In this document: positions 2,516 through 34,226 of the stretch, one piece after another
Layout: every line of letters begins with the position of its first letter
Numbering within the stretch: position 1 is the stretch's first letter
Assembly: GCA_037367355.1 (NCBI GenBank)
Contig: JAVSCG010000021.1
Coordinates: 1-40,000 of the forward strand
Length of the DNA: 40,000 bases
Source of the DNA: Neoscytalidium dimidiatum
Lineage: Eukaryota > Ascomycota > Dothideomycetes > Botryosphaeriales > Botryosphaeriaceae
Direction: 5' to 3'
Notes under the pieces: model-generated
The model's database searches: none
Told to the model about the DNA's origin: nothing
What the model saw: only the letters and a program-made list of their open reading frames with translations
Translations under genes and position numbers: made by a program

Positions 2516-2701
2516 TTACCATGGGAGAGTACCGCCCGCATATTTGTTTGGGCCTGGCATATCCTCATACCCGGGAACGTGAATGTTGAAGAATTTGCCA
2601 TTGTCAGTGGCAGTGACGCGGAAGACAATGTCCAAGGTGGCCTTTGCGCCTTGTTCTGGCTCAAGATCGGCGCTTCCGCTACTAAGGTCTGTCTTGTTCC
2701 A
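2516..2701 (-). pseudogene. Last exon (exon 4) of the split short-chain dehydrogenase
   Basis: Read on the minus strand, this exon starts at 2701 directly after an intron acceptor CTAG (2702-2705). It encodes residues 192-252 and ends in TAA at 2516-2518. It begins WNKTDL, continuing the SPG at the end of exon 3 (33549) to give the SPGW-x-x-TDL segment typical of fungal SDRs. It ends GYEDMPGPNKYAGGTLPW, the usual C-terminal tail of that group. The exon phase is 0, the same as the donor side. There are no stops or frameshifts. Its partner exons lie 30.8 kb away, beyond the transposon nest. It converges on the acetyltransferase gene with a 133-bp gap. I label it pseudogene only because of the insertion. 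Confidence 0.85.
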
Positions 2702-2716
2702 CTAGTTGCGTGATCA

Positions 2717-2721
2717 GTATT
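2717..2721. repeat. Copia target-site duplication, left copy (GTATT)
   Basis: GTATT directly precedes the left Copia LTR. The identical 5 bp follows the right LTR at 33488-33492. Confidence 0.85.
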
Positions 2722-2929
2722 TATTGAACTGGTTAGTTGATAGGGTACTGTATTAAGCAGTAATAATCAGTAGAATAAATAAATTAGCATACTGGTAAAA
2801 AATACCGAATAAGGGTGATTATATATATTTAGTATACGCTAATAAGTAAGCGAAATTAGTAGCGGAATTAAGTATAAAAGGAACGTACTATAATAGAAAA
2901 AATAATAACTATAATACTAGTATTTAATA
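2722..2929 (-). repeat. Copia 3' LTR (left copy)
   Basis: This 208-bp copy matches 33280-33487 over its whole length and differs almost only by C/T and G/A transitions. Its ends are TATTGAAC and TTTAATA where the unmutated forms would be TG...CA, consistent with RIP at the LTR tips. Confidence 0.85.
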
Positions 2930-2940
2930 CACCCCCTTCG
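2930..2940 (-). other. Copia polypurine tract
   Basis: On the minus strand CGAAGGGGGTG lies immediately before the 3' LTR, the position of the plus-strand primer in LTR elements. It supports the minus orientation. Confidence 0.65.
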
Positions 2941-3176
2941 TAAGATACGTAGAGTCTTGCGAAAAGACCGTAGAGAGCCTTATTAAAAGCTATAGAGGTA
3001 TTACTTTTACCGTATTAGTATAATAATAAGTAAAATCTTTCTTATAACTTACTAAGTACGCATTAATAATTAAAATTAATAATTTTATAATTTTCTAGGT
3101 AGTTAGAAGCGTAAAGAACGAAAAAATAAAGAGTATAGTAGTAGGGAGGTAGTCGTATAACGTAATACCTATATAG
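2930..3176 (-). mobile_element. Copia 3' internal fragment
   Basis: TA-rich RIP-mutated DNA between the Copia 3' LTR and chromovirus E1, with no open frame. Its last five bases, TATAG (3172-3176), are the outer target site of E1. Confidence 0.7.
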
Positions 3177-3529
3177 TGTTACGCCGGGACTCTTTCTGGG
3201 GGAGTCGAGGCGCGTCGTCAGGCAGCTTGGGCTTTCTAGGGGCCAATACAGTGGTAGGAGGTTCGGCAGCACAGTAGGAATCACCGAAGTTGACCACGAG
3301 GGTCCTAACTGATAAATGAGTGTGGTCTATATACATGGAGTGATCGGTACGATCAGTAGTGATCTGTAATGTTAACCCACTGATCAGTAATGAGTCATGG
3401 TTGTGAGCGAGTGTGGTTCTGGCGCATCAGTGTCAGGTATTCTGCCGAGTTAGCCCCGAGTTGGTCACGTGGGCGGTGAGTAGTCGTAGGGTTTCGTTAT
3501 CTGCCTTTCTGGGCGACTGTGCCGTAACA
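3177..3529 (-). repeat. E1 3' LTR, shortened to 353 bp
   Basis: Starts TGTTACGCC and ends CCGTAACA on the plus strand. Compared with the other copies (379-385 bp) it has several short deletions, mainly at 3240-3300 and 3395-3440. The purine tract (minus-strand GAGGGGGATAG) abuts it at 3530. Confidence 0.85.
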
Positions 3530-3611
3530 CTATCCCCCTCAGGCAACCTCGGCCCGAAGGTCGAGTATAAGGTAGTTGAGCTCCCTAGTTCCCTTGAGAT
3601 TAGCTGCCGTC

Positions 3612-4083
3612 ATGTTCAGTTTCGTCGCGCGCGCCTGCGTATCCTTCGTAACGGTACCGACGCTCCAGACGTTGCTTTTGTGGAGAGCTCGTCTTGCCAG
3701 TCTTGTGCCGGATTCAAGAGGTGTTACGAGGCAGAAAGCAAGAGGTTGCTTCAGCCCTTTCCTTCTGACATGGCTTCCTATTGAGCCGTCGTGTGGATCA
3801 ACAACGGGACCGGGTGCGGGCTCAGATTGAGCAGACCCAGCGCGAGATCGAAAGGGATGAGGCCGAGATTCAGCGGTTAAGAGAGGCTCAACGTTTGTTC
3901 GTCGTACCGCCACTCTCTCGGTCCAGATCCGCCTGTTGCGGACACTTTCCTTCCTGGGAGTCAGGAGTTGCTTGAGCGTGGGCGGCTGAGGCTGAGGAGG
4001 GCGAGCGCGGGCGGCTCCTGGTCCGCCGCGCGGCCCGACGGGCTGGTTCTCGAGAGGCACCGGTGACCAGTTTCAGGTGTCCT
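3612..4083 (+). pseudogene. E1 copy of the antisense Zn-cluster/coiled-coil gene, broken
   Basis: ATG 3612 corresponds to the starts at 15175 (E2) and 27161 (E4). The coiled-coil core is readable at about 3781-3900 (VDQQRDRVRAQIEQTQREI). The cysteine region is present but crosses frameshifts and small deletions. It lies opposite to E1 gag-pol, downstream of a TATAA near 3566 and a damaged copy of the conserved palindrome. The end is approximate. Confidence 0.55.
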
Positions 4084-4089
4084 GACGCC

Positions 4090-7000
4090 TCCGGTTTGCG
4101 TCGTGAGGATGCTTGCGGTCAGGGTTTCGTCGGTGGTTCATGATGAGTTCCTCGCAGTTAAGGTAAGAGATTGGTTCCCATGGGTTCCCGGCGGAATCTG
4201 CTCCATTTGATGAGGTACTTTTAAATTGATCGATCCATCAAAGTCTTCATCCATTTTTGTCCGTTCCTCCTTTGCAAGTTCAGTCATGGCGTTCTGTGTG
4301 CGGGTTCAAGTAAAGAGATGAAAACTGCGTACATCACTTGTTTGGCAATCTGAGTTTAAAGGAAACAGAAGTTTTTCTCAATTTGGTAGGTCCGATTTTT
4401 TGTGGTTCGTTTGTTTGATGATTTTTCCGTAGCCAGATGATTGTTTTTCAGGGGCAGCGAACTCGGCGCCGTCTGTCATGGTACATGGCCATTGGTATGC
4501 GGTGAATTTGATGTCTCGCCAGTTCCTGGTGTAGTTCACGTAAGTTGGCTCGGTTTGGCATAGTTAAGAGTACTGCATCTGCTCTCTTCGAAAGGTGGTC
4601 GAATCAAAGCTGGTGTAAGGGCGTACAGGTGAGGAGTTCGACCCAGTTGTTTTGCCTGTAATTGGTAGAATCTTAGGTACTGGTGCTGGTTGCTTGGTTG
4701 TTCATCGGTTTGCGCGGTGCCGTTGTTGACATCTTGTGTTAGTTCCTAACTTGGGACCAAGGTTTGCCAGAACTTGCTCGAATGTCTCGGTCCGGATTAT
4801 TGCTTGGGCATCCCGTGGTGAAGAACATGAAGCGAAGAGGTAGGCGCAGTCTTTCTTCGATTTGTTACAAGGATGAAGTATGCCCATTTTGTCAGGCGGT
4901 CGACATGACCAGGATGGCGTTGTGTCGTGCTTAGTCACAGGGTCTACTGAATTTGGCAGGTCGGTGCAATCCATTGTGACCGATTCTGTTTGGTTGGTGA
5001 TGAGCTGTAGTTGTCCGTATGGTGCATGTCGTGCCACCTTTTTTTGCGCATTCGTCACATTCCTGGATGATTTTCTTCTACTTTCCTCATTCGGGAAAGT
5101 AGAAGTGTTTGCAAGCCGTTCCAAGGTTCTTGTCATTTCCTCCGTGTCGTGACTCGTGGTATTTCTTTGTCAGCCGTTTGCGCAGAGGGTGTAGATTTTC
5201 CGCGAATAGTATGTTGTTTCCTCTGGTCTTGGACTAGGTGGGGTCGTCATGTTGGGGGTGCCTATTCGTTGAGAGTTTCTGGGATAGCGGATCATTGTTA
5301 TATTTTCCTGGATGATTTGTTCACGCGGTGTCATCTTCTTCCTCTTCCTGCCTCTTCCGTGGTTTCTCCAGTGTTGGTATGGGTTTCGTCCTGCGGTTCC
5401 TTCTTCTTCCTCCGGCTTCCGCTCTGGTGTTGTTTTCGTGGAGGTCGTCGTCGATGCAAATTTCAGCCTGATGCCAGTATCGTTCTTCCCAGGTGCGTCG
5501 GATTCTTCAATGATTCGGGGCGGTTCTAACGTGCCGTCGTCATTTTGTCGTAGCAGCTGGTGATAGTTCTGGCTTTCCTTCCACGTGGTCGGCTCTGCGG
5601 CTAAGTGCGTCGGCCTTGCCGTTTTCACTTTCCTTGCGGTAGTGATCTTGAAGTAGAAGTTGTTCTGCCCATCGTACCTTGTCTTCTGTTAACACCTTGG
5701 TGGTTGTGAAGTCCCAGGTTCTTGTGACCGAGTATACCGTGATTTCGTAGTTAGCTCCTCGCGTAGCAATGTCATCTTCGAACGCTTGTGATCGCAGCAT
5801 TTCTGTCGTGTATTCGTAATGAGCTGGGCGACATTTGCGAGAGCAATACGCGATAGGGTATCTTCTCGTCGTCTGGCTGGCGAGGGTAGCGCCAATGGCA
5901 TAGTCGGATGCGTCAGTTTCGCAGAGTATTGTCGGATCGAACATGAGGAGTACCGGCGCCTACGAAGGCCCTTTGAGTTGATCAAACGCGCCTTCTGGGG
6001 TGCTTCCCAGGTGAAAGCGTATTTTTCGTGCAGCGGATTAGGGTTCGGCTGCTGCGTTGTATCGTTTGACGAACGTCAGTTGGCAAACCCTGTAAGTACT
6101 TCTTTGACGTTCTCATTCACTTCAGGATGTCTTCCACCTTTTTGTCCATGACTATTTTTCCTGGTTCGATGATAAAGCCTAAATTTCCTTTGGGCATGGA
6201 AGGTATTTTCTGGTTTGACGAGAGTGTTTGAGTCGAGTTTCTGAGGACTTGGATACATGTTCCCTGTGTTCTTCAGCGGGTTTCTGATAGATCAGGATGT
6301 CGAGGTAGGCTTGCAGAATCGGTCCAGATATCGTAGGACGTGGTTGACAGGGCTTGAATGTGGCAGGGCGTTGGTAAGTCGAAAGGCACAAGGTACTCGT
6401 ACAACCGTATCGAGTTCTGAATGGTTTTCCATTCATGTCCTTCGATTTTCGGATAAGGTGGTACCCATCCCGCAGGTCATCCGGCGGAATCGTGCCCCGA
6501 GAGGCGCCCTTCAGTTCAGTAGAGGGGCGTCTTCTTGATGGTAATCGTTCAGGGATCGGTAATCACATGGCGTAACTTGCCTCCGGCTTGTACGAGACGG
6601 GACCTGCTGAGATTGAGAGGGTCGGACGTATCCCTCTTCAGTAGTAAGTCCAAGTGTTCTCATTGCTTGTAACTTCTTCCGACAGGCCCAAATCGTTCAG
6701 CGTTGCCTCGTTGATCTCGTGTTCCCATGGTCTGTGTTCGAGTCTTTTCTCTCTGAAAATTTCTGAACCGGCGGTACTTAGGAACGCCATCAAGGTACTG
6801 TTCGTATTGGTGGGGTCATCTCCTCCCACGGCGTCGGGTAGTCTGGCGGCACATCTGTCGGGCTTTCTTCGTCTGTGGTGGCGGCGATACCACATCATTC
6901 CAATTGCTTGCCCCTTCTTCGGTCCTGCGCAGCCGGAAATTAGGCTTACGTGGGTAATTGGTTGGTTATGGTGCGGTTTCCATTCTGGTTCTGCCAGCCT

Positions 7001-7310
7001 CTTCGACTTGAGGGTAATTATCGTATTGTATTTTCCATTTCTTCGCCAAGCGATGCCGAGAATGACATCATACTTGGGGAGCCTCTGGTAACGTCAGACA
7101 GATGACGTTCCTTCGTGGTTTTTGTATTCGAGGGTCAGTTTCGGTTTCGATGATTACCTTTCATCTCCAAAGGAGCTGGGGATCCATCAACAGTTTCAGC
7201 TGAGGTGGTCCGTCTTTCTCTGGTTTTAGGTTGGCTGCAAATGGTTTGAGACGTAGTTTCAGATGCGGAGTCATGAGGTGAGCGCTCGGCGTCCATTGAT
7301 TTGTCACGAC
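4090..7310 (-). pseudogene. E1 pol remnant
   Basis: Read right to left, the order is protease region (about 7000-7300), reverse transcriptase (about 6150-6650), RNase H (about 5560-5950), integrase (about 4600-5250) and chromodomain (about 4100-4250). Every domain is interrupted by frameshifts from 1-15 nt deletions, and part of the integrase core near 4560-4640 is missing. It cannot encode a working polyprotein. Limits come from alignment by eye to E2 and E4. Confidence 0.75.
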
Positions 7311-7407
7311 AACCCAGTGGTTCTCGTATTTCGCGGAGCCTTCTTTTGGTGGGTGTAGTTTTTCCGGTCGATGCTGTTGTGGCAGGGGCTCGCCTGCTGT
7401 CCCCAGT

Positions 7408-8447
7408 TCAGTAGGCGTTTCTCTGCTTGTGGTACCCGCCGATGTTCTTAGCTTCCTGGTGAATGGGGCAGGCTTCGATGCTACAGCGGGATGGTGGTGT
7501 CAGTCGGTTGGGCTAGCCGAGGTGGTCGCCATCGCTGGTTGCTGGTTCGTTTGTTGGGCAGTTTCTGCTGATATGTCCGCAGCTTCACGCAAAGACCCTT
7601 TCACGCCGTCGTGTTCTTCCTCCGGCGCCAGCCGAGGTTTCGTCGTTGGTGGCATCTAAGTCCGCAGCCCCGGGTAGGTTGCTGAGGTTGCGCGGTGTTG
7701 GCCGAGCATCGGGGCCCTGTCCGTCTGAAATTGAACAGCCTGATGCGGTCCGTGTGATGGTTCGGTTGTAACCTGGTATCCATGCGGGTAATTCGCCTCA
7801 CACAAGCAGGCTCGTGTAGATGGTTTGGGATTGGTCGTTCCAATTGAGGTAGAGGCGAGCACGGAATCCCGACATATTCCGAGACTGACGGGTTTGTCGG
7901 AGGTCCTGAATTGAAGGGCGCTGCTCGTTCTTGCACCAAAGGCGTTCATTGCGTCGGCGAAGCGATTGAGTTGGCGAACAGGCTACTGGTTTCCGTACGT
8001 GGATCGAGCGGAAATCCTTTCGATAGGTTCGAACCACCGTGCTGCGTTACTCGGAGGGTATTCCGCAAGCGGACCCTTCCTCATCGTCCTTGAATGATGC
8101 TTTGTAGAATGAAGTAATCTTCAGTTGGGCCAGGAAGTCGTTGAGCTTACGCCGATCCCCATCGTAGGTGTCGGGGTCTTGATCTTTAGTTTGTGTTGTG
8201 GGGTCGATTCTGATGTCGCGGGGTGGCTGGGGTGGAGGGGCATGACGGTAAGGCTTGTCCTCGAATGAAGTACCCAGAAGGACTTGGCCGCAGTTCACTG
8301 CGTTCTCTGAGGGCCGCTCTGCTGAAAGGAATGCCCGGAATATGCTTCCGAAATGAGCAGCCTCATGTTAAGAGCTGGGTTTCAGGAGAGGACGGCGAAA
8401 GCCTCCTCCGTCGGAAGGTTGTTCCTGATTTCGGTCCAGGATGTCAT
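7408..8447 (-). pseudogene. E1 gag remnant
   Basis: The ATG at 8445-8447 and the stop complement TCA at 7408-7410 correspond to gag limits in E2 (9582-10793). The central capsid-like block is visible near 8050-8170 in fragments. The CCHC knuckle region near 7570 is damaged by deletion. Several frameshifts. Confidence 0.65.
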
Positions 8448-8495
8448 GGTTAGTAGTTTTCAGGTGGGTTACCCCGGTGCCCAAGAAAGGTCAAG

Positions 8496-8874
8496 TGTTA
8501 CGCGGGACTCTTTCTGGGGGAGTCGAGGCGCGTCGTCAGGCAGCTTGGGCTTTCTAGGCCAATACAGTGGTAGGCAGGAGGTTCGTACAATAGTAGGGTA
8601 GGAATCACTGACAAGTTGACCACGAGGGTCCTAACTACGATAAATGAGTGTGGTCTATATACATGGAGTGATCGGTACGATCAGTAGTGATCTGTAATGT
8701 TAACCCACTGATCAGTACTGATCGGTGGTCCGAGCTTTGCTGAGCGAGTGTGCGGTGGTCTGGTGCATCAGTGTCGGTAGGTATTCTGCCGAGTTAGGCC
8801 CCGAGTTGGTCACGTGGGCGGTGAGTAGTCGTAGGGTTTCGTTATCCGCCTTTCTGGGCGACTGTGCCGTAACA
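8496..8874 (-). repeat. E1 5' LTR, 379 bp
   Basis: Nearly complete, with TGTTACG...CGTAACA ends. The priming sequence on its left is shortened to GGTCAAG, while the others have GGTGGTCAAAG. It is followed by GTTAC (8875-8879), the reverse complement of GTAAC that follows E2. Confidence 0.85.
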
Positions 8875-9141
8875 GTTACTAAATTTATACGATATATCGA
8901 ATACGGAGTAATTAGTAGTTATCTACTAGTAAACCTATTTAATACTATAGGTTTTCTAGTTAGTTCTATACGATATAGCGAATTATTTATTCTAACGTTA
9001 CGCCTACTACCGTATTTAGACGTTACGTTTTCGCCGACCGCCTAGTAAAAAACGCCCTATATATACTCGCTACCCTCGCTCTACTACTAACTTTCTTTCC
9101 TCTATAAGAGTTATAAGTACCTCGTTTACTAGTACTCTATA
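8875..9141 (+). mobile_element. Copia fragment inverted between E1 and E2
   Basis: 267 bp of TA-rich Copia DNA. Its ends, GTTAC and CTATA, are the reverse complements of the flanks outside E2 (GTAAC, 15646-15650) and outside E1 (TATAG, 3172-3176). Flipping this piece restores perfect 5-bp duplications for both elements. It is therefore in the opposite orientation to the rest of the Copia element. Confidence 0.8.
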
Positions 9142-9526
9142 TGTTACGGCACAGTCGCCCAGAAAGGCGGATAACGAAACCCTACGACTACTCACCGCCC
9201 ACGTGACCAACTCGGGGCCTAACTCGGCAGAATACCTACCGACACTGATGCACCAGACCACCGCACACTCGCTCAGCAAAGCTCGGACCACCGATCAGTA
9301 CTGATCAGTGGGTTAACATTACAGATCACTACTGATCGTACCGATCACTCCATGTATATAGACCACACTCATTTATCGTAGTTAGGACCCTCGTGGTCAA
9401 CTTGTCAATTGATTCCTACCCTACTATTGTACGAACCTCCCCTGCCTACCACTGTATTGGCCCCTAGAAAGCCCAAGCTGCCTGACGACGCGCCTCGACT
9501 CCCCCAGAAAGAGTCCCGGCGTAACA
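9142..9526 (+). repeat. E2 5' LTR, 385 bp
   Basis: Perfect 7-bp terminal inverted repeat, TGTTACG/CGTAACA. A U3 cluster of five GATC sites at 9293-9346 includes the 14-bp palindrome GATCAGTACTGATC (9293-9306). TATATA is at 9355-9360. Confidence 0.9.
9355..9400 (+). promoter_or_regulatory. Chromovirus LTR core promoter and probable start of R
   Basis: TATATA at 9355-9360 is followed 38 nt later by GTGGTCAA (9393-9400), a suitable distance for transcription start. The same arrangement occurs in the other LTRs, and the E3 LTRs keep this block although the rest of U3 differs. GTGGTCAA is the exact complement of the putative priming site just after the LTR. Confidence 0.55.
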
Positions 9527-9528
9527 CT

Positions 9529-9536
9529 TTGACCAC
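9529..9536 (+). other. Putative self-priming site (TTGACCAC)
   Basis: Two bases past the 5' LTR there is no TGG start as expected for a tRNA primer site. Instead TTGACCAC is the reverse complement of GTGGTCAA at the presumed 5' end of the RNA. Tf1/sushi-type chromoviruses prime with the 5' end of their own transcript, and this fits. The same pairing holds in E3 (19500-19507) and E4 (32775-32782). Confidence 0.5.
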
Positions 9537-9581
9537 CTTTCTTAGGCACCGGAGGTAACCCCACCCTGAAAACTACTAACC

Positions 9582-10793
9582 ATGACATCCTGGACCGAAA
9601 TCAGGAACAACCTTCCGACGGAGGAGGAACAGCTTCAGTCAATCCGTCCCTTGATCCCTGGAAACCCAGCTCTTAACATGAGGCTGCTCATTTCGGAAGC
9701 ATATTCTCGGGCATAGCATCCTTGAGTCGAGCAATCAACGGACCCAGAGTACCAGAGAACGCCAGTGAGGACTGCGGCCAAGTCCTTCTGGAGTACTTCA
9801 TTCGAGGACAAGCCTTTACTGTCAACCGTACTATGCGGCCCTCCACCCCAGCCACCCCGCGACATCAGAATCGACCCCCACAACACCAAACTAAAGATCA
9901 AGACCCCGACACCTACGATGGGGATCGGCGTAAGCTCAACGACTTCCTGGCCCAACTAGAGAATTACTTCGAATTCTACAAAGCATCATTCAAGGACGAT
10001 GAGGAAAGGGTCCGCTTTGCAGGAACCTACCTCCGAGGTAACGCAGCACGGTGGTTCGAACCCTATCGAAAGGATTTCCGCTCGGCCATCCCACGTACGG
10101 AAACCAGTAGCCTGTTCGCCAACTACAATCGCTTCGCCGACGCAATCAGACAAGCCTTTGGTAGCAAGAACGAGGAGCAGGAGGCCGCCCTTCGAATTCA
10201 GGACCTCCGACAAACCCGATCAGTCTCGGAATATGTCACGGAATTCCGCATGCTCGCCTCCTACCTCAATTGGAACGACCAATCCTCAAATACATCTTCT
10301 ACAAGGGCCTAAAGCACAATGTGAAGGCCGAATTCGCCCGCACCGGATTACCCAAGGACCTTAGCGAGACCATCGACACGGCCATCCGAGTCGACCAACA
10401 ACTGTTCAATTTCAGACAAGAGACAGGCCAAACCCGATACTCGGCCAACACCGCGCAACCTCGAAACAACCTACCCCCGGGGGACCCCATGGACTTAGAT
10501 GCCAACCAACGACGAAACCTCGGCTGGCGCCGGAGGAAGAACAGCGACGGCGTGAAAGGGTCTTTGCTTCCACTGTGGAAAGCACGGACATATCAGCAGA
10601 AACTGCCCAGACAAACGAACCAGCAACCAGCGAACCAACGACAAGAAAACCACCTCGGCTACTGAAGGACGACCGGAGACCCCCAACCATGACACCATCC
10701 ACTGGTCCACTTGTAGCATCGAAGCCTGCCCCATTCACCAGGAAGCTAAGAACATCAGCGGGTACCACCCAAAAAACTAGAAACGCCTACTGA
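9582..10793 (+). pseudogene. E2 gag, frameshifted
   Basis: Gag forms the particle that packages the element RNA. ATG 9582 opens MTSWTEIRNN, identical to the E4 start at 32730. A 1-nt loss near 9706 (TATTCTCGG against TATTCCTCGG in E4) makes a stop at 9714-9716. The frame resumes with the Pro-rich stretch and a capsid-like block at about 9920-10300 (DGDRRKLNDFLAQLENYFEF, then GNAARWFEPY). A further shift follows near 10290. The nucleic-acid-binding knuckle CFHCGKHGHISRNC is at about 10565-10606 (C-X2-C-X4-H-X4-C). TGA at 10791-10793 ends the region. Whether gag and pol are normally joined by frameshifting cannot be judged through these indels. Confidence 0.75.
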
Positions 10794-10915
10794 ACTGGGG
10801 CTACAGCAGGCGAGGCCCCTGCCCCACAGGACCATAGCAGCATCGACCGGAAAACCACAGGACACCCACCAGAAAGCAAAGGAGACCTGCAGAATACGGG
10901 AACCACTGGGTTGTC

Positions 10916-14842: not shown

Positions 14843-15175
14843 CCGAGAAGTGGCGGTACGACGAACCAAACGTTGAGCCTCTTGCAACCGCTGAATCTCG
14901 GCCTCATCCCTTTCGATCTCGCGCTGGGTCTGCTCAATCTGAGCCCGCACCCGGTCCCGTTGTTGATCCACACGACGAAACTCAATAGGGGCCATGTCAG
15001 AAGGAAAGGAACAAAGGTGGCCTCGCTTGGCACACTCGTAACACCTCTTGGAATCCGGCGACACAAGACAACGAAGACGAGGTCTCTCCACACAAAAGGA
15101 ACAACGTCTGGGAGCGTCAGTACCGTTACGAAGGATACGGGCGAGAAGCGCGCGTCGACGAGCGGAACTGGACAT
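14640..15175 (-). pseudogene. E2 antisense accessory gene: six-Cys Zn-cluster plus coiled coil
   Basis: Runs opposite to gag-pol between the chromodomain and the 3' LTR. ATG 15175 opens a 113-codon frame to 14834. Residues C25, C28, C36, C45, C48 and C55 give C-X2-C-X7-C-X8-C-X2-C-X6-C, close to the fungal Zn2Cys6 pattern. Residues 66-103 (start FRRVDQQRDRVRAQIEQTQ) predict a charged coiled coil. Homology to E4 continues in another frame as LFERELAAIEAEEAQEA, so a frameshift separates the halves. I estimate the full protein at about 180-220 aa; the end is approximate. A TATA box and palindrome lie upstream. Uncharacterised fungal proteins of this build are familiar to me, but I cannot name a family. 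Possible roles include DNA binding or control of the element. Confidence 0.6.
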
Positions 15176-15250: not shown

Positions 15251-15253
15251 TCC

Positions 15254-24440: not shown

Positions 24441-24479
24441 GCAGGCGTCAAGGCCACTCGATAACGATCAAGAGACTCC

Positions 24480-25140
24480 TCAGGCACGCCACCGTGCTCG
24501 AGTGCGCGCCCACCGCCCGGAGACCCGGCAGACCAACGACAAGCCAGTCTCATCATCCGAACCCGCGGAACATCCTGAGGCTCCCGCCTCTCGAGCCGCA
24601 GCCTCGCTCCAATCGTTCCTCCTCTTCCAAGGCAGCCATTTCGGGCAAACAAAGAAGCATTCCGACGCTCCACATGGCGCAATAACCGACGCAATTGACG
24701 CTCCTTCCGCTGGGCGTCCTGAAAACGACGAGCGGCCGCCTGCGCCTCACGCGCCGCCGCAGCCGCAGCCCGGCAGCCCGATCAGCAGCCTCCGCAGCAG
24801 CGTCAGCCCCAGCCTCTTCAGCAGCTACCTGACCTTCAGCCGCTTCAGGCGGCGAAGCAAGTCCTCACGAGCCCTATCCAGACGACGAACTAGGAGACCA
24901 GTCAACAACCCGTCAAGACGTTACAGGAATAACTTACATTCAGCATCCAGAGGACTCGCCATTGCGTCGCAGGAAGTAACGACCCACCGAGGCACAATAA
25001 GCACACGCCGAATAAAAATCTGCAAGAATACAACTCGACTTCACGCTTCACACAGCGTCTGCAGGAATGTCAGCAAGGCGCCCCCAAGATTGAATGCGTT
25101 GAGCCTGATTGCGACGGCGAAGGGTCCGCGCTGACGACAT
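24480..25140 (-). pseudogene. E3 antisense accessory gene, divergent and with an intron
   Basis: ATG 25140 on the minus strand opens MSSARTLRRRN, resembling the E2 start MSSSARRRA. Further on, pieces in shifting frames read CAYCASVGR, then CDAMASPLDAE, then FRRLDRAREDLLRRLKRL. This aligns with CYECAKRGH, SDMAPI and EFRRVDQQRDRVR of the E2 protein, so the two are homologous though divergent. Between DAE and FRR lies a canonical intron (24890-24937) that E2 lacks. Beyond it are Ala/Arg-rich and coiled-coil stretches. A TATAA near 25185-25190 lies upstream. The frame is interrupted in exon 1, and the end is approximate. Confidence 0.5.
24890..24937 (-). other. 48-nt intron in the E3 antisense gene
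   Basis: Minus-strand donor GTAAGT (24937-24932), a TTGAC/CTGG-containing pyrimidine-rich 3' part, and acceptor CTAG ending at 24890. Splicing joins phase-compatible codons DAE-FRR. Because it lies antisense to the element RNA, it would survive retrotransposition. Confidence 0.55.
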
Positions 25141-25223
25141 CGTGCGCGACTAAGGAAACAAAGGAAACAGCAGGAAGACCACCTTATAAAAGCTGGGCCG
25201 AAAGCTGTTTAGAAGGGGGATAG

Positions 25224-25605
25224 TGTTACGCAGCAAGAAGGGAAGGAGAGGAAGTGCTGAGCTGGAGGAAATCGGACCCACCAACACAACACAGCCAAGA
25301 TACAAGACGCCCGTGGCCACCCCGATGACTCAGCAACAACACCGCGGTCACAATGCCAAGGCCTGACCACTCAACCTGACCACCAGAACCACCGCGGTCA
25401 CGGCCAGCGGTCACACCCACTATCTCCTATAGCAGATATAGAGCACACTGTTCACAGTAGATAGGACCCCCGTGGTCAACTTGTCAATTGATTCCTACCC
25501 TACTATTGTACGAACCTCCCCTGCCTACCACTGTATTGGCCCCTAGAAAGCCCAAGCTGCCTGACGACGCGCCTCGACTCCCCCAGAAAGAGTCCCGGCG
25601 TAACA
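25224..25605 (+). repeat. E3 3' LTR, 382 bp, variant U3
   Basis: Preceded by the purine tract AGAAGGGGGATAG. Matches 19133-19497 with a few short indels, and is followed by the CTTAC duplication. Confidence 0.85.
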
Positions 25606-26682
25606 CTTACTAGTACTATATCGACTTTCGCCTTAAGTTTAGGGTTTCTAAGTACGTTATTAACTTTCTCTACTATCTTCTTACGTAGTTACTAATTCGT
25701 AGAACGAATAGATAGATTAATATAATAGTATATAGAGTACTAATAGTACTTATTATAGAGGTATTTTAGCTTTCTCTATTCTAAAGAATAGCCCCTAAAT
25801 TCTACTAAGAAGGCTTATTTAGGTTACTTATATAGGTTTTCTTTTAACTCTATCTCGGTTCTATACTATTTATATATTATAATAATACTATAGTCTAATA
25901 AGAGGTTATTCTTAAGTAGTATTCGTTAGTTTAAGGCGTAGATTTCGTCGTACTTCTAAAGTATTACTAGAGGCTATACTGTGATACTCTAGTAGTTATA
26001 AGTGGTAAGGTTATTTACTTATACGAAATGCCTATTCTTCCTATTTATCTATCTATAAGAGGACGTTTTAATAAGAGGTAGTGTCTAAAGCTTCTCAGTA
26101 TATTCTATATATAGCTATTCGATAATATATCTTCTAGTAGTACGTACTACTGTTTCTAAAGGGCATAGAAGAATGGCTATAGATAATAATCCTTAACTCC
26201 TAAGAATAGTTAGTATTAACGTCTAATTAAGCTAGTAATAACCTAGATAGCTATAAAATACGGTCCTTAGCCTCTTTAATAAACGCAGAGATTCCGTTTA
26301 TATTCTACTCTTAAATATTATTCGACTATAGGTTAAGATTTAATAACGAGAAGTCTTATATAGCTAAATTTAGGCTTAGTATAGGTTCCTCTAGTTACGT
26401 TAGCTTATTAGGCTTACTAGAGTCGATATATTCGAATATTTTATTAGATTTTACCTTAATTCTAATAGTATTAATCTAGTCTTCCTATTTATTAGGGCTA
26501 GTTAGTATAACTAGTATACGTAAGGCTATTATAGCGTATATACTAGTATTTAACTACTTATATATAGATAGTCCGTATCGCAGAAAAAGCGTTCCTTAAT
26601 AAAATAACTAAAGAGCTTCGTGCTTTTAGGTTCGAAAAAGGCGTACGACTCTCGATTAAGTACTTAAATACTAGATAGTAGT
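25606..26682 (-). pseudogene. Copia gag-side fragment destroyed by RIP
   Basis: TA-rich, CpA/TpG-poor DNA continuing the Copia element between E3 and E4. In minus orientation it lies between the leader (33165-33279) and the pol block, so it should be the gag and early pol region. No protein motif is readable. Confidence 0.6.
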
Positions 26683-27067
26683 TGTTACGCCGGGACTCTT
26701 TCTGGGGGAGTCGAGGCGCGTCGTCAGGCAGCTTGGGCTTTCTAGGGGCCAATACAGTGGTAGGCAGGGGAGGTTCGTACAATAGTAGGGTAGGAATCAA
26801 TTGACAAGTTGACCACGAGGGTCCTAACTACGATAAATGAGTGTGGTCTATATACATGGAGTGATCGGTACGATCAGTAGTGATCTGTAATGTTAACCCA
26901 CTGATCAGTACTGATCGGTGGTCCGAGCTTTGCTGAGCGAGTGTGCGGTGGTCTGGTGCATCAGTGTCGGTAGGTATTCTGCCGAGTTAGGCCCCGAGTT
27001 GGTCACGTGGGCGGTGAGTAGTCGTAGGGTTTCGTTATCCGCCTTTCTGGGCGACTGTGCCGTAACA
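26683..27067 (-). repeat. E4 3' LTR, 385 bp
   Basis: Full-length LTR with TGTTACG/CGTAACA tips. The purine tract (minus-strand GAGGGGGGATAG) abuts it at 27068. Confidence 0.9.
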
Positions 27068-27160
27068 CTATCCCCCCTCTAGGCAACCTTCGGCCCGAAG
27101 GTCGAGTATAAAGGTAGTTGAGCTCCTCCTTAGTTCCCTTGAGATTATTTCTCTGCCGTC

Positions 27161-27700
27161 ATGTCCAGTTCCGCTCGTCGACGCGCGCTTCGCCCGTATC
27201 CTTCGTAACGGTACTGACGCTCCCAGACGTTGTTCCTTTGTGTGAGAGACTCGTCTCGTTGTCTTGTGTCGCCGGATTCCAAGAGGTGTTACGAGTGTGC
27301 CAAGCGAGGCCACCTTTGTTCCTTTCCTTCTGACATGGCTTCCTATTGAGTTTCGTCGTGGATCAACACGGGACCGGGTGCGGGCTCAGATTGAGCAGAC
27401 CCAGCGCGAGATCGAAAGGGATGAGGCCGAGATTCAGCGGTTGCAAGAGGAGGCTCAACGTTTGTCTGTCGTACCGCCACTTCTCGGTCCAAGGTGATCC
27501 GCCTGTTGCGGACACTTTCCTTCCTGGATTCCCGGAGTCAGGAGTTGTTTGAGCGGGGAGCGGCCATTGAGGCTGAGGAGGCGCAGGAGGCGCGGGCGGC
27601 TCAGGGTCCTTGTTATCTGGTTCAGGCGGTGGTGACGTGGCGGGTTCCGACGGGCTGGTTCCTCGAGAGGCACCGGTGGACCAGTTTCAGGTGTCCTTGA
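27161..27700 (+). pseudogene. E4 antisense accessory gene: Zn-cluster plus coiled coil
   Basis: ATG 27161 starts as in E2 (MSSSARR). A 1-2 nt loss soon after moves the frame. The cysteine region and the coiled coil are readable in other frames, for example RVRAQIEQTQREIERDEAE at about 27375-27430. After another shift, FLDSRSQELFERG and AAIEAEEAQEARAAQG follow at about 27520-27605. The TATA box TATAAA lies about 50 nt upstream, preceded by the conserved palindrome. It opposes E4 gag-pol. The end at 27700 is the stop of the last readable frame. Confidence 0.55.
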
Positions 27701-30700
27701 CGCCTCCGGGTTTGCGTCGTGAGGATGCTCTGGGCGGCAGGGTTTCGTCGGTGGTATTCATGGATGAGTTCCTCGCAGTTAAGGTAAGAGATTGGTTCCC
27801 ATGAGGGTTCCCACGGGTTCCCGGCGGAATCCGCTCCTTCCCATTTGATGAGGTACTTAAATTGACCGTCGATCCAGTCTCCATCCAAGATTTTCTACGT
27901 CCCATTCTTTGTCGGCGTCATCGGGGTGTATTTCAAGTTCTGGGTCAGGTTCGGCGTTGCTGTGTGCGGGTTCAAGTAAAGAGATGTGGAAAACTGGGTG
28001 TATACCCACTTGTTCTGGCAATCTGAGTTTAAAGGAAACAGGTGAAAGTTTTTCTCAATTTGGTAGGGTCCGATTTTCTTGTGGTCCAATTTGTCGTTCG
28101 ATCGTGTTGTTTTGATGTTTTTTCTGAGGAGCCAGACTTTATCCCCCTCCTTCAGGGGCGGCGACGCCTGGCGCCGTCTGTCATGGTACATGGCCATTCG
28201 GTATGCGGTGAATTTGATGTCTCGGGCCAGTTCCTGGTGTAGTTCACGTAGCTGGTCTGCTCTGAGCATAGCTTTTGGGCGAGTACTTCGCAGATCTGGG
28301 GTTCTCCGAAGGCAGTAGGGTCGAATCCGTAGTTGGCGTAGAAGGGCGTGGTTTGTGTGGCTTCCGTTGATGTGCTGTTGTACGCGTATTGGGCTAATGG
28401 TAGGAGTTCGACCCAGTTGTTTTGCCTGTAATTCAGGTAGAATCTTAGGTACTGTTCTAGCGTTTGGTTGGTTCGTTCCGTTTGTCCATCGGTTTGCGGG
28501 TGTGCCGTTGTTGACATCTTGTGTTTAGTTCCTAACTTGTGGACCAAGGTTTGCCAGAACTTAGCTCTGAATCGTGGGTCTCGGTCCGTGATTAGTTCCT
28601 TGGGCATCCCGTGGTGGGCGAAGACATATCTGAGGAAGAGGTAGGCGCAGCCTTCTGCTCCGATTTTTGTTGTAAGGGATGAAGTTTGCCCATTTTGTCA
28701 AACGGTCGACAATGACCAGGATGGCGTTGTGTCGCGCTTTAGTCACAGGGTCTACTGAATTTGGCAGGTCGGTGATAAAATCCATTGTGACCGATTCCCA
28801 GGGTTTGGTTGGTGTTGTGATGAGCTGTAGTTGTCCGTATGGTGCATGTCGTGCCACCTTGTTTTTGCGCATTCGTCACATTCCTGGATGATTTTTCTAC
28901 TACTTTCCTCATTCGGGGAAAGTAGAAGTGTCTTGCAAGCCGTTCCAAGGTTCTTGTCATTCCTGGGTGTCCGTGAACTGCGGACTCGTGGTATTCCTTT
29001 GTCAGCCGTTTGCGCAGAGGTGTGGGTACGTAGATTTTTCCGCGGAATAGTATGTTGCCTCTATGGTCTTGGACTAGGTCGGGGTCGTCATGTTCGGGGT
29101 GCCTATTCGTTGAAGCAGTTCTGGGATAGCGGATCATTGTTATATTTTCCTTGATGATTTGTTCCCAAGTGGCGGTGTCATCTTCTTCCTCGTTTACTGC
29201 CTCTTCCGTGGTTTCTTCAAGTGTTGGTATGGGTTCCTCGTCCTGCGGTTCCTCTTCGTCCTCCGGCTCCTGCTCTGGTGTTGGGTTTCGTGGAGGTTCG
29301 TCGTCGTCGATGGGGCTCCCTAGCCTTATGATGGGTGCCAGTATTCGTTCTTCCCAGGGTGCGTCGGATTCTTCAATGATTCGGGGGCGGTTAGCCTAAC
29401 GTGCCGTCGTCATTTTGTCGTAGTACTGCTGGTGATAGTTCTGGCTTTCCTTCCACGTGGTCGGCTCTGCTAAGTGCGTCGGCCTTGCCGTTTTCACTTC
29501 CCTGCGGTAGTGGATCTTGAAGTAGAAGGGGGCGAGTTGTTCTGCCCATCGTACTTGTCTTCTGTTTAACACCTTGGTGGTTGTGAAGTATCCCAGGTTC
29601 TGTGATCCGAGTATACCGTGATTTCGTAGTTAGCTCCCCAAGGTAGTGTCGCCATTCCTTGAACGCTGTGACGATCGCAAGCAGTTCTTTGTCGTGTATC
29701 TCGTAATTGAGCTCGGCGGGTGACATTTTGCGAGAGTAATACGCGATAGGGTGTAATCTTCCTCGTCGTCTGGCTGGCTGAGGGTAGCGCCAATGGCATA
29801 GTCGGATGCGTCAGTTTCGAGGTAGAGTGGCTTGTCAGGATCGAACATGAGGAGTACCGGCGCTTCTACGAAGGCCCTTTGAGTTGATCAAACGCCTCTT
29901 GTTGGGGTGCTTCCCAGGTGAAAGGGTATTTTTTCGTGAGTCGGATTAGGGTTCGGCTACATGCGAGTATCGTTTGATGAATCGTCGGTAGTTGGCAAAC
30001 CCTAAAAAGGCTTGTACTTCTTTGACGTTCCTTGGTTCTGGCCACTTCAGGATGTCTTCCACCTTTTGGGTCCATGACTATTTTTCCTGGTTCGATGATA
30101 AAGCCTAGGAATTCTACCCTTTGGGCATGGAAGGTACATTTTTCTGGTTTGACGGAGAGGTTGTATTCGAGTAGTTTCTGGAGGACTTTGATACATGTTC
30201 CTTGTGTTCTTCAAGGGTTTCTGAGTAGATCAGGATGTCGTCGAGGTAGGCTGTGCAGAATCGGTCCAGATATTCTCGTAGGACGTGGTTGACAAGGGCT
30301 TGAATGTGGCAGGGCGTTGGTAAGTCCGAAAGGCATTACCAAGTACTCGTACAAACCGTATCGAGTTCTGAATGCGGTTTTCCATTCATGTCCTTCCTTG
30401 ATTCGATAAGGTGGTACCCATCCCGCAGGTCTAACTTGGTGAAGAATCGTGCCCCGAGAGGCGATCCCTTAGTTCATCGATGCGGGGTAGAGGGTAGCGG
30501 TCTTTGATGGTAATGTCGTTCAGGATCGGTAATCCACACAGAGGCGTAACTTGCCTCCGGGCTTTGGTACGAAGAGGACGGGGAATCCTGCTGAGGATTG
30601 AGAGGGTCGGATGTATCCCTCTTCAGTAGTAAGTCCAAGTGTTCCTCATTGCTTGTAACTCCTTTTCCGACATTGATATAGGGGTCCAAATCGGGGTTCA

Positions 30701-31405
30701 GTGCCTGGTTTCAAGTTGATCTCGTGGTCCCATGGTCTGTGTTCCGGTAGTGCGTCTTCGATCTTTTCTCTGAAAATTTCCTTGAACCGGTGGTATTCCT
30801 TAGGAACGCCATCAAGGTACTGTTCGTGTATCCTGGTGGGGTCATCTCCACGGGTGTCGGGTAGTCTGGTTTTTCTCGTCTGGTGGCACTAATCTGTCGG
30901 GTTCTTTCTTTGTTTGTAGTGGTGGGGCGATACCACATCATTCCAATTGCTTGCCCTTCTTTCGGGTCCTTTCCAGCGCAGCTTTCGAAATTAGGCTTAC
31001 GTGGGTAATCGGTTCGGCTATGGTGCGTGGTTTCCATTCTGGTTCTTGGTTTCGTTCTCTGACTTGAGGGTATTCCTCCATTGTCCCAATCGTATTGTAT
31101 TTTCCATTTCTTCTGCCAAGGGATGCCGAGAATGACATCATATTTGGGATCTTGGTAACGTCTAGACAGATACGTTCCTGTGGTTTTTGTATTCGAGGGT
31201 CAGTTTCGGGGTTTCGATGATTACCTTCCATCTCCAAAGGAGCTGGGGATCCATCAACAGTTCTCAGCTGATATGGTTGGTCCTTTTCTCTGGGTTTTAG
31301 GTTGGCTTTTTCTGCAAATCGGTTTGAGACGTAGTTCCTTGTGATGCGGAGTCGATGAGGGTGAGCGCTCGGCGTCCATTGATTTTTGTCACGACAACCC
31401 AGTGG
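27680..31405 (-). pseudogene. E4 pol, frameshifted
   Basis: Read on the minus strand: protease about 30940-31405, reverse transcriptase about 30050-30690 with the YLDD complement near 30240, RNase H about 29400-29850 ([16 protein letters not shown]), integrase about 28150-29140, chromodomain about 27750-27905. The integrase core is open over 151 codons at 28152-28607 (MPKELITDRDPRF, later [11 protein letters not shown]), one of the cleanest stretches of the family here. Frameshifts near 27905, 28660, 29720 and 30640 interrupt it. Confidence 0.8.
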
Positions 31406-31515
31406 TTCCCGTATTCTGCGGAGTCTCCTTTGCTTTCTGGTGGGTGTCCTGTGGTTTTTCCGGTCGATGCTGCTATGGTCCTGTGGGGCAGGGCCTCGCC
31501 TGCTGTAGCCCCAGT

Positions 31516-32730
31516 TCAGTAGGCGTTTCTAGTTTTTGGGTGGTACCCGCTGATGTTCTTAGCTTCCTGGTGAATGGGGCAGGCTTCGATGCTACAAGTG
31601 GACCAGTGGATGGTGTCATGGTTGGGGTCTCCGGTCGTCCTTCAGTAGCCGAGGTGGTTTTCTTGTCGTTGGTTCGCTGGTTGCTGGTTCGTTTGTCTGG
31701 GCAGTTTCTGCTGATATGTCCGTGCTTTCACAGTGGAAGCAAAGACCCTTTTCACGCCGTCGCTGTTCTTCCTCCGGCGCCAGCCGAGGGTTTCGTCGTT
31801 GGTTGGCATCTAAGTCCATGGTTCCCCGGGGTAGGTTGTTTCGAGGTTGCGCGGTGTTGGCCGAGTATCGGGTTTGGCCTGTCTCTTGTCTGAAATTGAA
31901 CAGTTGTTGGTCGACTCGGATGGCCGTGTCGATGGTCTCGCTAAGGTCCTTGGGTAATCCGGTGCGGGCGAATTCGGCCTTCACATTGTGCTTTAGGCCC
32001 TTGTAGAAGATGTATTTGAGGGATTGGTCGTTCCAATTGAGGTAGGAGGCGAGCATGCGGAATTCCGTGACATATTCCGAGACTGATCGGGTTTGTCGGA
32101 GGTCCTGAATTCGAAGGGCGGCCTCCTGCTCCTCGTTCTGCTACCAAAGGCTTGTCTGATTGCGTCGGCGAAGCGATTGTAGTTGGCGAACAGGCTACTG
32201 GTTTCCGTACGTGGGATGGCCGAGCGGAAATCCTTTCGATAGGGTTCGAACCACCGTGCTGCGTTACCTCGGAGGTAGGTTCCTGCAAAGCGGACCCTTT
32301 CCTCATCGTCCTTGAATGATGCTTTGATGCTTTGTAGAATTCGAAGTAATTTCTAGTTGGGCCAGGAAGTCGTTGAGCTTACGCCGATCCCCATCGTAGG
32401 TGTCGGGGTCTTGATCTTTAGTTTGTGTTGTGGGGGTCGATTCTGATGTCGCGGGGTGGCTGGGGTGGAGGGCCGCATAGTACGGTTGACAGTAAAGGCT
32501 TGTCCTCGAATGAAGTACTCCAGAAGGACTTGGCCGCAGTCCTCACTGGCGTTCTCTGGTACTCTGGGTCCGTTGATTGCTCGACTCAAGGAGGCTATGC
32601 CCGAGGAATATGCTTCCGAAATGAGCAGCCTCATGTTAAGAGCTGGGTTTCCAGGGATCAAGGGACGGATTGACTGAAGCTGTTCCTCCTCCGTCGGAAG
32701 GTTGTTCCTGATTTCGGTCCAGGATGTCAT
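31516..32730 (-). pseudogene. E4 gag, frameshifted
   Basis: ATG at 32728-32730 opens MTSWTEIRNN and the frame runs 125 codons without the early stop of E2. It then shifts near 32430, in the Pro-rich stretch. An 8-bp tandem duplication (GATGCTTT twice, 32318-32333) adds another shift in the capsid-like block. Later parts, such as GLKHNVKAEFARTGLPKDLS, are open at 31616-32056. The CCHC region near 31730 is damaged. Confidence 0.7.
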
Positions 32731-32784
32731 GGTTAGTAGTTTTCAGGGTGGGGTTACTCCGGTGCCTAAGAAAGGTGGTCAAAG

Positions 32785-33164
32785 TGTTACGCCGGGACTC
32801 TTCTGGGGAGTCGAGGCGCGTCGTCAGGCAGCTTGGGCTTTCTAGGCCAATACAGTGGTAGGCAGGGAGGTTCGTACAATAGTAGGGTAGGAATCAATTG
32901 ACAAGTTGACCACGAGGGTCCTAACTACGATAAATGAGTGTGGTCTATATACATGGAGTGATCGGTACGATCAGTAGTGATCTGTAATGTTAACCCACTG
33001 ATCAGTACTGATCGGTGGTCCGAGCTTTGCTGAGCGAGTGTGCGGTGGTCTGGTGCATCAGTGTCGGTAGGTATTCTGCCGAGTTAGGCCCCGAGTTGGT
33101 CACGTGGGCGGTGAGTAGTCGTAGGGTTTCGTTATCCGCCTTTCTGGGCGACTGTGCCGTAACA
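32785..33164 (-). repeat. E4 5' LTR, 380 bp
   Basis: TATATA at 32946-32951; the TTGACCAC complement of the RNA start is at 32906-32913. The priming site (plus-strand GTGGTCAA) is at 32775-32782. GTAGT follows at 33165. Confidence 0.9.
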
Positions 33165-33279
33165 GTAGTAGTAGTAGGATATACTAATACTACCGTATAT
33201 ATTATTGCCTAGATACTATAGGTTAACTTATATATATATATTACTCGGAAGGCATTAATACGCGGGCCGGGCTTATAAC
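33165..33279 (-). mobile_element. Copia 5' leader fragment with half-tRNA primer site
   Basis: Short TA-rich leader next to the Copia 5' LTR. At 33269-33279 the minus strand reads GTTATAAGCCC. It matches the complement of the initiator-tRNA-Met anticodon arm (GTTATGAGCCC) with one G-to-A change of RIP type. Copia/Ty1-like elements commonly prime from an internal iMet-tRNA fragment. Confidence 0.6.
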
Positions 33280-33487
33280 TATTAAACTAGTTAGTTAATA
33301 GGGTACTATATTAAGTAGTAATAATTAGTAGAATAAATAAATTAGCATACTAGTAAAAAATACCGAATAAGGGTAATTATATATATTTAGTATACACTAA
33401 TAAGTAAGCGAAATTAGTGGCGGAATTAAGTGTAAAAGGAACGTACTATAATAGAAAAAATAATAACTGTAATACTAGTGTTTGACA
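33280..33487 (-). repeat. Copia 5' LTR (right copy)
   Basis: 208 bp, same length as the left copy. The outer tip is TTTGACA, intact here and mutated to TTTAATA in the left copy. Followed by GTATT (33488-33492). Confidence 0.85.
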
Positions 33488-33548
33488 GTATTTGCAACCA
33501 AAAAAAAAAAAAAAAAGAACTGTTCAAAGAGTTATAGGTTATGCTTAC

Positions 33549-34226
33549 GCCCGGCGAGAGTGCCACAACTGTGAAGCCCTCCTCTTCGAGGTCTTGTGCA
33601 TATTGAACAGTAAGCATATTGAGGGCTGCTTTCGACACCTTGTAAGCCGGGACCTTGCCCCATTTGTAGCCAGGCGCCAGGGCAATGGAGCCAAGCGTGC
33701 TAGAACTGCAAGAAAACATTAGGATCTAGCTATCTACTCCGTGTTCAAGAGTGGAGACCTACACGTTGATGATTTTCTTCAGGTTGCCCTTCCTTAAAAG
33801 AGGCAGATATATTCTTGTAACAGCGTGGACGCCTGCAACATTGACTTTGAACACCTCATCGAGGTCCTCCCTACTACGGGTCAGTCTCGGAAATCTGCGG
33901 AAAGTTCAAAATGCTCACATTTCCTCCGTGCTGGTCGGAGTTTTGCTCATTATTCCGGCATTGTTGATGAGTACATCTAGGCCTTTGCCACCCAATGACT
34001 CGGAGACTTTGCTAGCTGCTTGTTTGACGCTTTCATTGGAAGTGACTTCGAGAGCGACCCATTCGACGCGGCCTCCTGACTCGGCAACGAGCTTCTTCAG
34101 GCTGTCGGTTTCCGTACGTGATGATGCGTATATCTTGCCTACTTCGGTCGCCGGTTTGGATGCAAGAGCGTTGACTATAGCAAGGCCGATGCCACGAGAG
34201 GAGCCGGTAACGAGGTAAGAAGCCAT
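33549..34226 (-). pseudogene. Short-chain dehydrogenase/reductase, exons 1-3 (residues 1-191)
   Basis: NAD(P)(H)-dependent oxidoreductase of the classical SDR type; substrate unknown, probably cytosolic. Exon 1 (34226-33919) has the TGSSRGIG cofactor loop (residues 7-14) and NNAG (88-91). Intron 1 is 33871-33918. Exon 2 (33870-33763) reads through VFKVNVAGVHAVTRIYLPLL. Intron 2 is 33706-33762, with a CTAAT branch motif. Exon 3 (33705-33549) has the catalytic Ser (SS, 140-141), Tyr160 and Lys164 (YKVSK), and ends SPG. Exon 4 lies at 2516-2701. Joined exons total 759 nt, giving 252 residues, the usual SDR length. No stop or frameshift occurs in any exon. If the 30.8-kb third intron is not removed, translation would run into intron sequence and lose the last 61 residues. 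Confidence 0.9.

What the first reader, a model, noticed from the sequence alone, without database searches (positions are those of the whole stretch)
2516..34226. A 31-kb nested retrotransposon cluster sits exactly inside a short SDR intron, leaving all four exons intact
The SDR N-terminal 191 residues end at a GTAAGC donor (33548). The last 61 residues start after a CTAG acceptor (2702). Both junctions are phase 0 and the joined exons give a standard 252-residue SDR. The Copia insertion, with a GTATT duplication, lies inside a 76-nt ancestral intron beside its branch-like CTGAT. The Copia copy looks old (RIP-saturated), yet the exons, within 20-56 bp of it, show no RIP and no lesion. Either the insertion is young and RIP was fast and sharply confined, or the 30.8-kb intron is still spliced, which would be extraordinary for a filamentous ascomycete.
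Basis: partly seen in the sequence, partly recalled or inferred. Interest (0 to 1): 0.85.

Follow-up and report, generated by a model that had tools for sequence, protein, structure and literature searches.

The report
Jumping genes nested inside an intron
In a fungus that causes canker of dragon fruit, a retrotransposon landed in a tiny intron of an ordinary enzyme gene and four more piled into it, leaving the coding parts unharmed; this fits known habits of such elements and most likely disabled the gene recently.

Summary
Two parts of a short-chain dehydrogenase (191 + 61 residues) belong to one gene: both have the same best relative, contiguous at residues 191|192, and a paralogue has an intron at the same place and phase. 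A Copia element (2722-33487, duplication GTATT) sits in what was a 76-nt intron; four Gypsy copies sit in the Copia. The assembly is Neoscytalidium dimidiatum (Nanopore plus Hi-C).

RIP mutation stops at the Copia edge at 28 of 28 other Copia ends tested, so clean exons 20-61 nt away are normal here. The Copia is heavily RIP-mutated yet young: seven LTR pairs show 149 transitions and no transversion in 1,440 sites, so intact exons are no proof of selection. The Gypsy family carries a chromodomain; 27 of 27 classifiable ends (about 21 insertions) lie in RIP-mutated DNA, random control 0 of 40. That explains nesting and spared exons.

Most likely a recent disruption, with full-length mRNA rarely or never made. 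A still-spliced 30.8-kb intron is not excluded: no RNA data could be searched. Order inside the cluster is less certain (poorly polished repeats, one inverted 267-bp piece).

The parts
33919..34226 (-). SDR exon 1 (start codon at 34226)
33763..33870 (-). SDR exon 2
   Evidence: acceptor chosen by agreement with relatives
33549..33705 (-). SDR exon 3, ends ...ALSPG at donor GTAAGC, phase 0
33488..33548 (-). donor-side remnant of the 76-nt intron, including duplication GTATT (33488-33492 on +)
33280..33487 (-). Copia LTR (5' LTR in the sense of the element)
33165..33279 (-). Copia internal piece, RIP-mutated
26683..33164 (-). Gypsy copy G4 (sense on minus), duplication GTAGT
   Evidence: integrase domains on minus; boundaries
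25606..26682 (-). Copia internal piece, RIP-mutated
19133..25605 (+). Gypsy copy G3 (sense on plus), duplication CTTAC; error-rich ends
   Evidence: RT domain on plus; boundaries; quality
15646..19132 (-). Copia internal piece, RIP-mutated (GC 0.28)
9142..15645 (+). Gypsy copy G2 (sense on plus); flanks CTATA / GTAAC do not match each other
   Evidence: gag domain on plus; boundaries
8875..9141 (+). 267-bp Copia piece, inverted relative to the rest of the Copia
   Evidence: opposite orientation in 8 of 8 other copies that cover it
3177..8874 (-). Gypsy copy G1 (same LTR orientation as G4), 784 bases shorter than G4 through many small gaps; flanks TATAG / GTTAC are the reverse complements of G2's
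2930..3176 (-). Copia internal end with polypurine tract GAAGGGGGTG next to the LTR
2722..2929 (-). Copia LTR (3' LTR in the sense of the element)
2702..2721 (-). acceptor-side remnant: duplication GTATT (2717-2721), branch-like CTGAT, acceptor CTAG
2516..2701 (-). SDR exon 4 (61 residues, then stop)

Best explanation
A Ty1/Copia element of a family that sits in normal, gene-like DNA landed in the 76-nt third intron of a four-exon SDR gene. RIP then mutated the repeated Copia copies up to their edges and no further. This left a small RIP-mutated, probably heterochromatic island inside the intron. A chromodomain Ty3/Gypsy family, spreading after RIP had stopped acting in this lineage, inserts into RIP-mutated DNA and put four copies into the Copia while sparing the exons. 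The exons are whole because the events are recent, not because function is shown. The gene most likely no longer makes a full-length mRNA: the Copia, G4 and G1 lie in its sense orientation, and their LTRs would be expected (general knowledge) to end transcripts. Shown: anatomy, duplication, sharp edges, near-absence of non-RIP change between LTRs, targeting pattern. Inferred: heterochromatin, order of events, loss of expression.
For: One gene: N part and C part each have P0001 (Neofusicoccum ribis) as best hit among the proteins held, 75% over its residues 1-191 and 70% over 192-252. Each part has one place of 99-100% identity in the genome. The C10 paralogue has an intron at the same place and phase with the same ACTGAT motif. 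GTATT stands on both sides; 6 of 7 other paired Copia ends have a matching 5-bp duplication. Sharp RIP edges: 28 of 28 other ends fetched have CRI below 1 at 60-160 and 160-360 bp outside. Young: seven LTR pairs, 1,440 sites, 143 RIP-type and 6 other transitions, 0 transversions. Targeting: RIP-type DNA outside 27 of 27 classifiable Gypsy ends of 30 examined, about 21 insertions by spacing, against 0 of 40 random 300-bp stretches; Chromo domain in a genomic copy. Sense of the Copia on minus: polypurine tract, and 9 of 9 reverse-transcriptase matches lie opposite to the window-plus LTR orientation. All 9 carry 13 to 18 stops.
Against: No transcript data: loss of expression is not shown. All splice signals survive, and relative-rate tests show no faster evolution than P0001, which a working gene would also give. 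From the window's LTR pair alone the age bound is loose: at its upper limit the chance of intact exons without selection is 0.03. Transversions between different Copia copies are not zero (474 in 48,404 sites); I read them as divergence before insertion or consensus error, untested.
Confidence: 0.8

Rival explanations
1. The 30.8-kb intron is still transcribed and spliced, and the SDR is functional.
For: Donor, branch-like motif and acceptor are kept; the frame is intact and 35 of 35 invariant residues are kept; longest introns up to 42,135 bp are given for fungi compared in PMC7181583 (passages).
Against: The Copia, G4 and G1 lie in sense orientation and would be expected to end transcripts. 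Mean intron in the published annotation is 101.89 bp (PMC10714984). Intact exons are expected anyway at the pooled age limit.
Confidence: 0.07
2. Exons 1-3 are expressed as a truncated protein: 191 residues plus a 40-residue read-through tail ending in the Copia LTR.
For: The frame runs on for 40 codons before a stop; the insertion lies downstream of exons 1-3 and leaves the start of the gene as it was.
Against: The last 61 residues, with Y245 and G247 invariant in the alignment, would be lost; no expression data.
Confidence: 0.09
3. The arrangement is an assembly error: a repeat cluster was joined wrongly into the gene.
For: The 40,000-base contig looks like a cut piece: 19 of 20 other small contigs probed have lengths that are multiples of 20,000. 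Repeat copies are poorly polished (99 gaps against 23 substitutions between G2 and G4; G1 lacks 888 and has 104 extra bases relative to G4). The 267-bp piece and the flanks of G1 and G2 are inverted.
Against: Matching GTATT on both sides of one element with both LTRs, and two exon sets that fit one gene to the codon. The doubts touch the inside of the cluster, not the fact of the Copia insertion.
Confidence: 0.04

Closest known systems
Classical short-chain dehydrogenases of fungi ('short chain oxidoreductase', 'C-factor' in the names of hits)
   Same: Domain, motifs, length 252, intron position shared with a paralogue
   Different: Intron 3 is 30.8 kb instead of 61 nt (paralogue) or 76 nt (ancestral)
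RIP-mutated Ty1/Copia insertions in euchromatin of filamentous ascomycetes
   Same: Inserted in normal-GC DNA, 5-bp duplication, RIP confined to the element; two other copies abut ORFs with STAND-type and APH-like domains
   Different: This one lies in an intron, so no exon is cut
Chromodomain Ty3/Gypsy elements (chromoviruses) that insert in heterochromatin (Gao et al. 2008, seen only as cited in passages of PMC3248453; the paper itself is not held)
   Same: gag, protease, RT, integrase and a Chromo domain in the family; RIP-mutated DNA outside 27 of 27 classifiable ends
   Different: Copies are not RIP-mutated although many and near-identical

Membership tests
Short-chain dehydrogenase/reductase | Pfam adh_short match, TGxxxGxG, NNAG, YxxxK | tested here: met
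   PF00106 E=1.8e-33 on the N part; TGSSRGIG, NNAG and YKVSK read in the sequence (motif meanings recalled)
Short-chain dehydrogenase/reductase | full-length mRNA made | not testable with these tools
   no RNA data could be searched
Ty1/Copia LTR retrotransposon | LTR pair and 5-bp target duplication | tested here: met
   208-bp LTRs, GTATT
Ty1/Copia LTR retrotransposon | RVT_2 reverse transcriptase | tested here: inconclusive
   9 genomic places match PF07727, all with stops and all beside LTR places of this family; the window copy is not among the 9
Target of RIP | C-to-T changes at CpA, high TpA/ApT, in repeats | tested here: met
   CRI 1.49-2.25; 14 of 15 LTR differences in RIP context, the other a transition
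Chromodomain Ty3/Gypsy (chromovirus) | gag, protease, RT and integrase domains | tested here: met
   PF03732, PF13650, PF00078, PF17921 over cut-off in one or another window copy; frames broken by gaps
Chromodomain Ty3/Gypsy (chromovirus) | Chromo domain after the integrase | tested here: met
   PF00385 E=3.7e-9 in a copy elsewhere (L041); the two window ORFs tried for it gave no match
Functional giant spliceosomal intron | splice junction seen in RNA | not testable with these tools
   signals present, RNA not searchable

The most novel reading that the evidence does not exclude
The 30.8-kb intron is still removed. RIP-bounded Copia insertion followed by chromodomain-guided Gypsy insertion would then be a route by which a compact fungal gene gains a giant, heterochromatin-filled intron without coding damage.
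Probability: 0.07. Interest if true: 0.7.

Novelty: new member of a known kind. Interest (0 to 1): 0.32.

Why it matters
It shows in one locus how two retroelement families with opposite insertion habits and a sharply bounded mutation process build a large repeat island inside a gene without scarring the exons. It also warns that 'RIP-saturated' does not mean old. If the intron were still spliced, it would be a test case for how far fungal splicing can reach through heterochromatin.

Tried and rejected
My first gene model had one extra residue (192 instead of 191) from another acceptor of intron 1; relatives showed the acceptor before 33870 to be right, so searches used the longer version. An apparent 2-nt gap between the Copia LTRs vanished once the polypurine tract was placed. 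Notebook entry 2 (2-nt gap) and entry 4 (13-19 stops; the answer gives 13-18) are superseded by this report. dN/dS against an uninterrupted orthologue was not done: I had no orthologous DNA (the tool states that G000 has no relatives here; the genome collections are prokaryotic by their descriptions), and the C10 paralogue has frame breaks. The flanking 285-residue dehydrogenase gave no same-species relative among the 120 listed (best 73%). Paper searches on retrotransposons in fungal introns showed nothing directly on point in their listings; this is not a claim that none is in print. The Copia ends L017/L037 gave no matching duplication and were left out of the pooled LTR pairs. Three of 30 Gypsy loci (L046, L047, L067) could not be given an outer side and were left out of 27 of 27; each has at least one side with RIP-type composition. 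Of 38 other Copia LTR places listed (76 candidates, 40 scored, 2 in the window), only the 28 fetched were tested for RIP edges.
Full report
WHAT WAS CHECKED. The finding says that a 31-kb retrotransposon cluster lies exactly inside a short SDR intron. I re-derived the gene model, compared both halves with relatives separately, searched the whole assembly for other copies of the gene and of the elements, and built controls from the same genome.

ORGANISM AND ASSEMBLY. The window's assembly has 43,759,583 bases in 40 contigs, with contigs of 4,873,947, 3,925,773 and 2,640,097 bases among them. These equal the total, scaffold number, maximum, N50 and N90 in Table 1 of the Neoscytalidium dimidiatum (pitaya canker) genome paper (PMC10714984; abstract, assembly section and methods read). 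Its methods name Nanopore R9.4 reads, Canu and wtdbg2, Pilon polishing, and Hi-C placement with Juicer and Juicebox. The window is the whole of contig C21, reported as 40,000 bases. Of 20 other small contigs probed, 19 have lengths that are multiples of 20,000 and one (C40) has not. I read this as pieces cut on a 20-kb grid during Hi-C correction (inference). The window's ends are therefore arbitrary, and its place in a chromosome is unknown.

THE GENE. Exons are 34226-33919, 33870-33763, 33705-33549 and 2701-2516 on the minus strand; the product is 252 residues. The N part (191 residues) and the C part (61) were compared separately with the 240 proteins then held, 120 of them SDR relatives. 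Both have P0001 (Neofusicoccum ribis) first, at 75% over its residues 1-191 and 70% over 192-252. In the genome the N part matches at 99-100% only here (50 matches, the next best 70% over part of it), and the C part at 100% only here (2 matches, the other 61%). That other match is a paralogue on C10 with an intron at the same codon boundary and phase, 61 nt once the A of GGA is counted as exon, with the same ACTGAT motif near its acceptor. So an ancestral short intron at this place is well supported. All 35 columns invariant in 23 relatives are kept in the window protein; of 57 columns at least 95% conserved, one differs. Relative-rate tests against P0001 with three outgroups give chi-square 0.38 to 0.81, no sign of faster change.

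THE INSERTION. The Copia lies between 2722 and 33487, with 208-bp LTRs and GTATT on both sides. The two intron remnants with one GTATT make 76 nt; the apparent intron is 30,847 nt. The polypurine tract GAAGGGGGTG stands before the LTR nearer exon 4 on the minus strand. In 9 of 9 genomic reverse-transcriptase matches beside LTRs of this family, the match lies on the strand opposite to the window-plus LTR orientation. So the Copia runs in the sense of the SDR. Among seven other Copia copies with both ends held, six have matching 5-bp duplications.

THE PARADOX OF CLEAN EXONS. First, sharp edges are general here. At 28 of 28 other Copia ends fetched (38 other LTR places were listed), CRI is below 1 both 60-160 and 160-360 bp outside the LTR. 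The first 60 bp are too short to judge and vary, two of them above 2; one end (L023) has RIP-type DNA again from 360 bp outward. Leakage beyond repeats is known elsewhere (at least 930 bp in N. crassa, cited in PMC2973834, passages seen), so this is a property of this genome, not a law. Second, RIP saturation is not age. The two LTRs of this Copia differ at 15 of 208 sites: 14 RIP-type transitions, one other transition, no transversion. Pooled over this copy and the six others with matching duplications there are 143 RIP-type and 6 other transitions and no transversion in 1,440 aligned sites. If transversions are a third of neutral changes, and nonsense 5% and indels 12% of them (my assumptions), the pooled upper limit gives about 2.9 neutral changes in the coding sequence and a chance of at least 0.61 of no nonsense or indel without any selection. 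From this pair alone the limit is loose, and the chance falls to 0.03. Pooling assumes that the copies are of similar age. Comparisons between different copies do show transversions (474 in 48,404 sites), which I read as older divergence among source elements or consensus error in repeats.

WHY THE GYPSIES NEST HERE. A Gypsy LTR from the window finds at least 40 places at 100% identity (216 candidates, 40 scored). Thirty were fetched. In 27 the outer side could be told, and all 27 have RIP-type DNA in the first 300 bp outside (CRI about 1.0 to 2.7); 4 of these are recognisably this Copia. Six pairs of the 27 are spaced like the two ends of one element, so they stand for about 21 insertions. 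Of 40 random 300-bp stretches from the 12 large scaffolds, none has CRI of 1 or GC below 0.40. A copy elsewhere encodes a Chromo domain (PF00385, E=3.7e-9). A survey of LTR elements in fungi says that Ty3/Gypsy elements prefer heterochromatin and Ty1/Copia active regions (PMC3248453, passages seen). So the Copia made a RIP-mutated island in an intron, and the Gypsies homed to it. The window's Gypsy copies are not RIP-mutated (CRI -0.28 to -0.11) although the family is many and near-identical, so RIP appears not to have acted since their spread (inference). Three DNA-methyltransferase-type genes without stops in the matched frame are present; I did not classify them.

WHAT IS UNCERTAIN INSIDE THE CLUSTER. 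G2 and G4 are 99.64% identical over 6,422 sites but have 99 gaps against 23 substitutions; G1 lacks 888 and has 104 extra bases relative to G4, and the ends of G3 are error-rich. Gaps outnumber substitutions in all six comparisons of the four copies, as expected for repeats that short reads could not polish (inference). The 267-bp Copia piece 8875-9141 is inverted relative to its neighbours in 8 of 8 other copies that cover it. The flanking 5-mers of G1 (TATAG, GTTAC) and G2 (CTATA, GTAAC) are each other's reverse complements, left to left and right to right. An inversion by recombination between the two oppositely oriented Gypsies explains both facts; an assembly flip explains them equally. 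G3 (CTTAC) and G4 (GTAGT) have normal duplications.

FUNCTION. Reading on from exon 3 gives 40 more codons and a stop in the Copia LTR. A transcript must cross the Copia in sense and, first among the Gypsies, G4 in sense. I judge full-length mRNA unlikely but untested. Splice signals survive, so removal of the whole insert remains possible. Mean intron length in the published annotation is 101.89 bp; longest introns of 1,356-42,135 bp are given for fungi compared in PMC7181583, without proof here that those are spliced.

VERDICT. It is a clear example of known processes rather than a new kind of gene structure. The most interesting by-product is the clean split in insertion habit between Copia and the chromodomain Gypsy in one genome.

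Noticed in passing
Gypsy LTR loci L041-L070 (whole genome): Chromodomain Gypsy copies with identical LTRs have RIP-mutated DNA outside 27 of 27 classifiable ends (about 21 insertions) of 30 examined; random control 0 of 40.
   Followed up: yes
window 8875-9141, G1 and G2 flanks: A 267-bp Copia piece is inverted and the flanking 5-mers of two opposite Gypsy copies are exchanged: inversion by recombination, or an assembly flip.
   Followed up: partly
contigs C13-C40 of the assembly: 19 of 20 small contigs probed have lengths that are multiples of 20,000 bases, as if cut on a grid; C40 (307,956) is the exception.
   Followed up: partly
C10:227358-228270 (L071): The SDR paralogue lies about 2.2 kb from another Copia end (C10:225141) and has two frame breaks in homopolymer runs: base-calling error or decay.
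   Followed up: no
L017 and L028: Other Copia copies abut ORFs with STAND-type (NPHP3_N, Goodbye) and APH-like domains that run into the Copia edge.
   Followed up: partly
C11:690723, C7:2844826, C11:1820556: Three cytosine-methyltransferase-type genes without stops in the matched frame; whether they include the RIP enzyme was not tested.
   Followed up: no
window 3177-8874 and ends of 19133-25605: Very low consensus quality in these Gypsy copies (hundreds of small gaps) next to unique DNA whose exons are free of frame breaks.
   Followed up: partly
window 1714-2382 (+): A GNAT acetyltransferase ORF ends 133 bp from the end of SDR exon 4, tail to tail.
   Followed up: no
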